From NCBI GenBank assembly GCA_021797635.1, contig JAJZZI010000113.1, positions 1-33,242 on the forward strand: a stretch of 33,242 nucleotides of DNA, given 5' to 3'. The translations under genes were made by a program, and so were the position numbers. The notes beneath the pieces are model-generated. The model made no database searches. It was given only the letters and a program-made list of their open reading frames with translations, and was not told the DNA's origin. Shown piece after piece: positions 2-1,547 of the stretch; the stretch's first letter is position 1, and each line of letters opens with the position of its first letter. Source of the stretch: Bacillota bacterium (GTDB taxonomy: Bacteria > Bacillota > Sulfobacillia > Sulfobacillales > Sulfobacillaceae).

Positions 2-1033
2 CAGGCACGCCAGCAAGCGTGGCAGGAAGCCTGGGACGAAAGCCGGAATGGTCGGCTGTCTGCACGCGGGGACCGCACGAAAAAAGGGAATCCCCTTCTT
101 CGCGTCCGCGAAGGGCCTGACCATTGGACCTTAGAAATTTCACTCGATTGTTTCAGACCGGGCAAACCCGGTGCGAAAGTCCATCGGTATGAGAAGTTGG
201 AAATCCCGCTTTATGTGGCGCGTAAGGTATCCAAGAAAACCGGCCGGATCAATGGACGTGACTATGAAGGATTGTTGCGTCGAGTCCTGGCCTCGGGCGA
301 TCCGTATCAGGTGGAAATCCTTCGGTGCCGAGGACGGTATCAGGTGCGGATTACCGTCGAAGAAGTGCCGGCGCCCTCACACACCGATCCCCCTAACGGC
401 TGGGTCGGAGTGGATACCAATGTCACGTTTTTCGCCCTTTGTCATGTACTGCCCGATGGGAATCCTCATGCCTTTGCCACGATTGGGAATTCGCGTCTCT
501 ACGATGTCCGATCCACCCAACGCGACGCGTTGGTGGGGTCACTGGCCATCGAGACGGTTCAGTGGGCGAAGGATCGTGGGGCCGGACTCGTCGTGGAGGA
601 TTTGCGATTCATCCATGATCGGGATGTCAGCGCCAAGTTTAACCGCGTGACGCACCAGTTTAATTACCGGGCCTTGCTGACGGCGATCGAACGGCAGGCC
701 GCGCGGGAAGGGGTCGCACTCCGTAAGGTTAAGCCGGCATATACCTCACTGATTGGACTGGTCAAATATCAACCGCACTATGGCATTAGTGTCCATCATG
801 CGGCAGCGTTGGTCATTGGCCGCCGAGGCGGCCTCAAAGTCTGGCGGGAGAACGTCCCCAAAGCCCTGCGGCAGTGGATGCAAGCGCATGGTCAGTGGAA
901 TGACGCGACCTATCGCCAAACCGACTGGAGCGCATGGAATCGACTCAAACGGGCCCTCACTGCCGCCCTGAAAAAACGACATCAGTATTTAAATGCCTGG
1001 TTAGGGTATCGCAAGACGTTATTCTCCGAATGA
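2..1033 (+). CDS. TnpB-family (IS200/IS605 OrfB-like) protein, 5' end outside window
   Basis: The reading frame is open from the first bases of the window to the TGA at 1031-1033, so the N-terminus is missing; a start at 197 would drop conserved sequence. At least 343 residues are present. RuvC-like motifs can be read: GVDTNVT (Asp near codon 138) and VVEDLRF (Glu near codon 199). The position where TnpB proteins carry a four-Cys zinc ribbon and a final D-x-N-A-A motif reads YTSLIGLVKYQPHYG then SVHHAAALVIGRR: no CxxC pairs, and Val/His at the third acidic position. TnpB is an RNA-guided nuclease of IS200/IS605/IS607 elements. A branch with an SVH[HQ]AAA-type end is, from memory, found in other bacteria, so this is probably an intact divergent member. 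No tnpA transposase is visible. Structured sequence follows the stop at once. Family call is firm; activity is unknown. Confidence 0.8.
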   Translation, partial: QARQQAWQEAWDESRNGRLSARGDRTKKGNPLLRVREGPDHWTLEISLDCFRPGKPGAKVHRYEKLEIPLYVARKVSKKTGRINGRDYEGLLRRVLASGDPYQVEILRCRGRYQVRITVEEVPAPSHTDPPNGWVGVDTNVTFFALCHVLPDGNPHAFATIGNSRLYDVRSTQRDALVGSLAIETVQWAKDRGAGLVVEDLRFIHDRDVSAKFNRVTHQFNYRALLTAIERQAAREGVALRKVKPAYTSLIGLVKYQPHYGISVHHAAALVIGRRGGLKVWRENVPKALRQWMQAHGQWNDATYRQTDWSAWNRLKRALTAALKKRHQYLNAWLGYRKTLFSE

Positions 1034-1039
1034 CCAACA

Positions 1040-1275
1040 TCTCATTTCCCCGTCGCCACCACGTGGCGAAAGGAGCGACGGGGCATCTTGATGAGGGCCC
1101 AGTAACACTGGGGCTCAGGGCACCACCGATGGGACACCGATGGGTGTTTTCTGCCATCTTTCTCCTACCGGGATCTTGAGCGGGGAACTGGGGAAACGCA
1201 TCCCGGCTCCATGGGGCGGAAGCCACCCCCGAGCAGACGAATCCTGTGAGGACTGCGGATCCCGTGAGGGATCGA
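1040..1275 (+). ncRNA. Candidate omega (guide) RNA / element right end after the TnpB-like gene
   Basis: This segment starts just after the tnpB-like stop and is rich in hairpins. CCCCGTCGC (1048-1056) pairs with GCGACGGGG (1075-1083), with an alternative inner stem CGCCAC/GTGGCG (1054-1068). CCCAGT (1098-1103) pairs with ACTGGG (1107-1112), flanked by GAG/CTC. GATCCC (1258-1263) pairs with GGGATC (1268-1273) around a GTGA loop, preceded by a smaller TCCT/AGGA hairpin. TnpB guide RNAs are known to overlap or follow the 3' end of tnpB and to end at the element's right end, so position and structure fit. The boundary of the element and any guide sequence cannot be placed by eye. It could instead be only the structured transposon end. 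Confidence 0.4.
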
Positions 1276-1547
1276 GAAAAACCGAAAGAGATTATTGTAG
1301 GTTTTTTAACCAGGCCCAGGCGAGTCACCGGACCTTGACAAGCGAATCATTACTGGAATTCCTCTCGGCATTTACGACGCATGCCAAATGTTAGTTTATA
1401 GCCAAAATGGTACATTAGACGAGGCAAGGGTGATTGCGGCCAAATACCGACGATCTCGACCCCATCTCCTAGCTCGATGGTCGGGTCCGTGCAGTAAGCT
1501 AGTGGGGGCTCATCCATACAACCTAAGGCATCTTGGGATGTATCTTC
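1276..1547. other. No gene recognised between the structured segment and the small membrane protein gene
   Basis: Only short overlapping open frames without ribosome binding sites were found here (for example 1388-1624 on the plus strand, which runs antisense into the next gene). No repeat, terminator or RNA gene could be recognised. A right boundary of the TnpB-type element may lie in this stretch. Confidence 0.4.

What the first reader, a model, noticed from the sequence alone, without database searches (positions are those of the whole stretch)
2..1033. TnpB relative lacking the zinc ribbon and the third RuvC acidic residue
The Asp and Glu of the first two RuvC motifs are present, but the zinc-ribbon Cys pairs are gone and the final D-x-N-A-A motif reads VHHAA. 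Either an alternative residue completes the active site or the protein is a nuclease-dead, RNA-guided binder. TnpB-derived repressors without nuclease activity (TldR) are known, which makes this branch worth testing. It might be a whole uncharacterised clade.
Basis: partly seen in the sequence, partly recalled or inferred. Interest (0 to 1): 0.6.

Follow-up and report, generated by a model that had tools for sequence, protein, structure and literature searches.

The report
IS607 TnpB with histidine third ligand
A mobile genetic element in an acid-loving bacterium carries a relative of the RNA-guided DNA cutter TnpB that has lost its zinc finger and uses histidine where one of three metal-binding acids should be; the gene and its guide RNA are strongly conserved, so it is more likely a (perhaps weakened) working cutter than a dead one.

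Summary
The ORF is real (window 2-1033) but starts at a contig edge, so its N-terminus is missing. It is the 3' part of a ~2.5-kb IS607-type element (serine recombinase tnpA, overlapping tnpB of ~506 codons, structured 3' RNA, right end at 1314). The zinc ribbon is absent, as reported. In 101 non-redundant relatives the triad is D-E-H (79) or D-E-D (22) and nothing else. A single origin of His is rejected (p-AU 3.5e-5), so Asp and His have interchanged. The gene is under purifying selection (dN/dS ~0.12), copies are mobile with empty sites in relatives, and the 281-nt 3' RNA shows strong covariation. Thermus/Deinococcus RuvC resolvases with His for the third active-site Asp are active (PMC3834835, PMC9228767). 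Best reading: a catalytically competent, possibly attenuated, zinc-ribbon-less TnpB. A nuclease-dead TldR-like binder is not excluded but disfavoured. Nuclease activity could not be tested here. RuvC-III-rearranged TnpB clades (RIII-r) are already published; whether this is one of them could not be checked.

The parts
2..1033 (+). tnpB-like CDS, 3' two thirds (343 codons + stop); 5' end lost at the contig edge
   Evidence: full-length relatives of 506 aa in L041, L038, L060
413..415 (+). RuvC-I Asp138 (GVDTN)
   Evidence: invariant in alignment A2; present in all 101 family members with the site complete; hhalign to canonical TnpB
596..598 (+). RuvC-II Glu199 (VVEDL)
   Evidence: invariant in A2 and in all 101; hhalign register with canonical EDLNV
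743..769 (+). TSLIGLVKY: short conserved segment in place of the Cys4 zinc ribbon
   Evidence: TS-x-x-G-x-x-K(Y/F) conserved across the family; canonical TnpBs of the same family of bacteria have PSSK-CSxCG-...-CxxC here
794..796 (+). RuvC-III His265 at the catalytic-Asp position
   Evidence: 79 His / 22 Asp / 0 other in nonredundant members; register by hhalign; the AlphaFold2 helix of L041 starts at 427, its His is 428
1034..1314 (+). structured 3' RNA region (putative omegaRNA scaffold)
   Evidence: 26 of 60 predicted pairs with compensatory changes; covariation score 0.400 vs 0.174 +/- 0.012 shuffled (0/500) and at most 0.108 when slid; no Rfam family
1308..1314 (+). right end of the IS607 element (AACCAGG)
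   Evidence: similarity among copies stops abruptly after this sequence; empty sites in relatives of two other copies
1315..1334 (+). right flank, which would serve as the guide of this copy
   Evidence: inference from TnpB biology: the guide follows the right end of the element

Best explanation
The locus is the 3' part of an IS607-type element. Its TnpB is an RNA-guided DNA endonuclease of a zinc-ribbon-less branch in which the third RuvC metal ligand is His (His265) instead of Asp. Shown by sequence: the IS607 recombinase with tnpB overlapping it, mobility with defined ends, purifying selection, a conserved structured 3' RNA, and strict Asp/His use at the RuvC-III position. Inferred: the 3' RNA is bound by the protein as scaffold, the flank after the right end is the guide, and the protein binds and cuts the empty donor site (GGAGG + guide; in the inserted state the guide is preceded by CCAGG instead), so that the element is kept after excision. 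Inferred: D138, E199 and H265 hold the metal, and the His makes the enzyme slower or more Mn-dependent than an Asp enzyme.
For: D-E-H in 79 and D-E-D in 22 of 101 nonredundant members, no other residue; further members on plasmids of Klebsiella, Pseudomonas, Thermaerobacter, Mycobacterium and Streptomyces also read His (by eye). On the tree His and Asp interchange at least twice; one clade of His rejected, p-AU 3.5e-5. A degenerating site would be expected to collect Ala, Asn, Ser and others and would hardly exchange with the exact catalytic residue. dN/dS 0.09-0.15 against the window, median 0.12. IS607 TnpA 186.7 bits (cut-off 110) in L041, frame overlapping tnpB; IS607 TnpA on the same strand in 41 of 99 more distant loci (a lower bound because many loci are short). 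Near-identical copies at different sites in one genome, empty sites in relatives. RNA covariation. Model of L041: pLDDT 83; best fold matches Cas12f, then TnpB and RuvC. Precedent: Thermus RuvC has His as third active-site residue and is active, H143D raises activity (PMC3834835); Deinococcus RuvC has a third metal-chelating His, requires Mn2+, and loses activity when it is mutated (PMC9228767).
Against: No activity data. The RuvC precedents keep a further helix Asp (Asp142 in Deinococcus RuvC) that these proteins lack, so the parallel is not exact. The zinc ribbon/TNB is absent. Active-site geometry could not be measured, because model coordinates are not returned. Purifying selection, RNA conservation and mobility would also fit an RNA-guided binder that helps the element.
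Confidence: 0.68

Rival explanations
1. Nuclease-dead RNA-guided binder: RuvC-III lost its acid, and the protein binds guide and target without cutting, as TldR repressors do, to repress or to help transposition.
For: No acidic third residue and no zinc ribbon. TldRs arose several times by RuvC inactivation (PMC13418256). In 8 of 19 copies a start codon with an open frame follows the right end within 3-14 nt, against 21.5% background, so guides may cover gene starts.
Against: Strict H/D with interchange. Copies remain in mobile IS607 elements with tnpA, whereas many TldRs are described as associated with non-transposon genes (PMC13418256). Asp-type members of the same branch keep all three acids.
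Confidence: 0.17
2. The site is completed by another residue (for example an Asp of HDRDVSAKF after RuvC-II, or the invariant Glu283), and His265 has a different role.
For: Acidic residues lie nearby in sequence, and E283 is invariant in A2. RuvC catalytic rearrangements are known in TnpB, and one RII-r5 ortholog is active (PMC10278001).
Against: The position itself alternates only between His and Asp, which ties its function to the catalytic site. Asp-type members have the ordinary acid there.
Confidence: 0.08
3. Plain decay of a transposon gene.
For: Broken fragments of the family exist in this and related genomes; the window copy is cut by the contig edge.
Against: dN/dS about 0.12, many intact full-length copies, covarying 3' RNA, uninterrupted frame in the window.
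Confidence: 0.03

Closest known systems
Canonical IS605/IS607 TnpB (NCBIfam NF040570)
   Same: RuvC-I Asp and RuvC-II Glu, IS607 recombinase partner, structured 3' RNA ending at the right end, TnpB/Cas12f-like fold
   Different: No Cys4 zinc ribbon; His at the RuvC-III Asp; scores below the family cut-off (57.6-60.1 vs 100 bits)
TnpB clades with RuvC-III rearrangement (RIII-r, e.g. RIII-r4; PMC10278001)
   Same: Mobile TnpBs with an atypical RuvC-III motif; the authors state that inactivation should not be assumed
   Different: Motif details are not in the text held (the cited survey was not available), so identity with this branch could not be tested; the rearranged clade reported active there is RII-r5, not an RIII-r one
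IS200/IS605 family accessory protein TnpB-related protein (TIGR01766; e.g. Thermus plasmid and Thermaerobacter proteins)
   Same: Same branch by sequence; annotated family name
   Different: An annotation label without function; the Thermus members have Asp, the window branch His
Deinococcus-Thermus RuvC resolvase (third residue His)
   Same: His at the third RuvC active-site position, active enzyme
   Different: Holliday-junction resolvase, not RNA-guided; keeps one more helix Asp
TldR nuclease-dead repressors
   Same: TnpB relatives with altered RuvC and a guide RNA
   Different: TldRs have non-transposon gene partners; this family is in mobile IS607 elements

Membership tests
IS607-type TnpB | IS607 serine recombinase tnpA directly upstream | tested here: met
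   Missing in the window copy (contig edge); in relatives NF033518 186.7 bits (cut-off 110), overlapping tnpB
IS607-type TnpB | RuvC-I Asp and RuvC-II Glu | tested here: met
   D138, E199; invariant
IS607-type TnpB | RuvC-III Asp (DRDxN) | tested here: not met
   His265 at that position
IS607-type TnpB | Cys4 zinc ribbon between RuvC-II and RuvC-III | tested here: not met
   Replaced by TSxIGxxKY
IS607-type TnpB | Conserved structured RNA at the 3' end of the element | tested here: met
IS607-type TnpB | RNA-guided DNA cleavage | not testable with these tools
   Needs an assay
NCBIfam guided_TnpB NF040570 | Score above curated cut-off | tested here: not met
   57.6 (window) and 60.1 (L041) vs 100 bits
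TldR | Association with non-transposon genes (domestication) | tested here: not met
   Multi-copy mobile IS607 elements with empty sites
TldR | Inactivated RuvC site | tested here: inconclusive
   Asp to His, a known metal ligand; activity not assayed
RIII-r4 TnpB clade | Specific RuvC-III motif of that clade | not testable with these tools
   Named in PMC10278001; defining alignment not held
Cas12f | Associated CRISPR array | not tested
   No array search was run on the window; the partner is an IS607 recombinase

The most novel reading that the evidence does not exclude
A pan-bacterial branch of IS607 TnpB has dispensed with the zinc ribbon and runs RNA-guided DNA cleavage with a D-E-H site, and Asp and His have replaced each other there more than once, so that evolution tunes cleavage rate or metal preference at one position.
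Probability: 0.5. Interest if true: 0.7.

Novelty: new variant of a known kind. Interest (0 to 1): 0.5.

Why it matters
Calling TnpB or Cas12 relatives 'dead' from a missing third Asp is a natural shortcut; a conserved His/Asp alternation would show that rule to be unsafe. A TnpB without a zinc ribbon and with an exchangeable third ligand is also useful for understanding which parts of the Cas12 ancestor are needed for cutting, and a single His-to-Asp change makes it directly testable.

Tried and rejected
Decay: rejected by dN/dS and intact copies. The automatic profile comparison of the family with canonical TnpB stops before RuvC-III; only after removing the zinc-ribbon columns did the Asp-type profile align through it, and the His-type profile did not do so directly, so the register is a two-step chain. 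phmmer of the window protein against PDB gave nothing significant; the profile reached Cas12f (E 1e-10) but only up to the residue before the zinc ribbon. Rfam: no family. First viral scan with the single protein found no relative. Empty site for the window copy: its right flank is not found in relatives except for a 51-base stretch. First residue tally with hmmalign left many rows as gaps and was replaced by a MAFFT alignment. Paper searches for RIII-r details led only to PMC10278001.

Full report
What is there. The window is a whole contig (C214) of a ~3.06-Mb draft genome. The frame 2-1033 is open from the first base, so the gene is cut at its 5' end. Relatives in the same bacterial family (record titles name Sulfobacillus and unnamed Bacillota) give the full gene: 506 codons beginning MKTTIFGVLL, whose ATG overlaps the end of an IS607 tnpA. 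That recombinase scores 186.7 bits for NF033518, cut-off 110. Copies begin at (GG)AGGTTTAAGCTGCTT and end at TAACCAGG, about 2.5 kb in all; outside these ends similarity stops. One genome (G023) has three nearly identical full copies in different flanks. For copies in G029 and G010, relatives hold the uninterrupted site, with GGAGG at the junction. In the window the right end is at 1314.

The protein. RuvC-I Asp138 and RuvC-II Glu199 are present; the Cys4 zinc ribbon found in canonical TnpBs of the same bacteria is replaced by TSLIGLVKY. Against 101 non-redundant family members with a complete site, the third position is His in 79 and Asp in 22, with no third alternative; these come from Bacillota genomes (49 of 398 sampled carry the family at E <= 1e-25), viral contigs, plasmids and Thermus phages. 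Members on plasmids of Klebsiella, Pseudomonas, Thermaerobacter, Mycobacterium and Streptomyces also read His (read by eye, not in the count of 101). The register was checked in two steps: His-type against Asp-type profiles (hhalign E 4e-39, ungapped through the motif) and Asp-type against canonical TnpB without the zinc-ribbon columns (SKDVAAA with DRDINAA). The direct His-type to canonical comparison did not extend through the motif. The AlphaFold2 model of L041 (pLDDT 83, 32 sequences) puts this His (428) at the start of a helix (427-438), and its best structural matches are Cas12f, then TnpB and RuvC.

Evolution. A maximum-likelihood tree with the trait column removed needs at least two Asp/His changes within the family; holding the His rows together as one clade is rejected (log-likelihood lower by 45.8, p-AU 3.5e-5). 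The group was named by the trait, one lone Asp row (L155) is on a long branch, and the outgroup is distant, so whether His arose twice from Asp or reverted to Asp is open. dN/dS against the window is 0.09-0.15 where dS is not saturated.

RNA. The 281 bases between stop codon and right end are conserved among copies that diverge elsewhere. Twelve sequences give a 60-pair consensus with 26 pairs showing compensatory changes; covariation 0.400 against 0.174 +/- 0.012 in shuffles (0 of 500) and at most 0.108 with slid partners. No Rfam family matches.

How it probably works. By analogy with TnpB, the 3' RNA is processed as scaffold and the flank after the right end is the guide. The empty site reads GGAGG + guide whereas the inserted copy reads CCAGG + guide, which would suit a nuclease that cuts the donor site left after excision and spares the inserted copy. 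This is inference. That His can serve as third ligand is known from RuvC: Deinococcus-Thermus RuvC has His there and is active, H143D increases activity (PMC3834835); Deinococcus RuvC needs Mn2+ and its His is essential (PMC9228767); and His is among the residues listed for this position in the RNase H-like superfamily (PMC3985635). Those RuvCs keep another helix Asp, which is lacking here.

Novelty. TnpB clades with RuvC-III rearrangements (RIII-r) have been reported, with a caution against assuming inactivity (PMC10278001). I could not see their motifs, so this branch may already be one of them. What I did not find described in the papers held is the strict His/Asp alternation linked to loss of the zinc ribbon.

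Verdict. A conserved TnpB variant, ordinary in its IS607 setting, unusual in its active site. The dead-nuclease reading is possible but less likely than a competent, perhaps attenuated, D-E-H nuclease.

Noticed in passing
L059:2111-4200 (Thermus phage Lalka27b PQ109077; the gene also in Lalka27a and Lalka8): An Asp-type zinc-ribbon-less TnpB gene is followed within about 20 bases by an annotated CRISPR array (7 repeat copies with ...GTTTCTCCCGTGCGCGCATGGAGGCACCG, spacing 61-62, one 35). Possibly a phage-borne Cas12-like system derived from this branch. The array was examined in Lalka27b only.
   Followed up: partly
L011/L078 (G029): tnpA and tnpB are in one continuous frame of 726 codons, as if fused.
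   Followed up: no
L060-L079, right flanks: Copies sit at GGAGG; in 8 of 19 a start codon of a frame of at least 40 codons lies 3-14 nt after the right end, against 21.5% background, suggesting insertion into Shine-Dalgarno sequences (small sample).
   Followed up: partly
L055:624-3499 (Ammonifex degensii plasmid): A His-type TnpB gene lies 15 bases downstream of an iscB gene.
   Followed up: no
G000 C18, C215, C87: The window's genome holds broken fragments of the same family besides several canonical zinc-ribbon TnpB matches.
   Followed up: no
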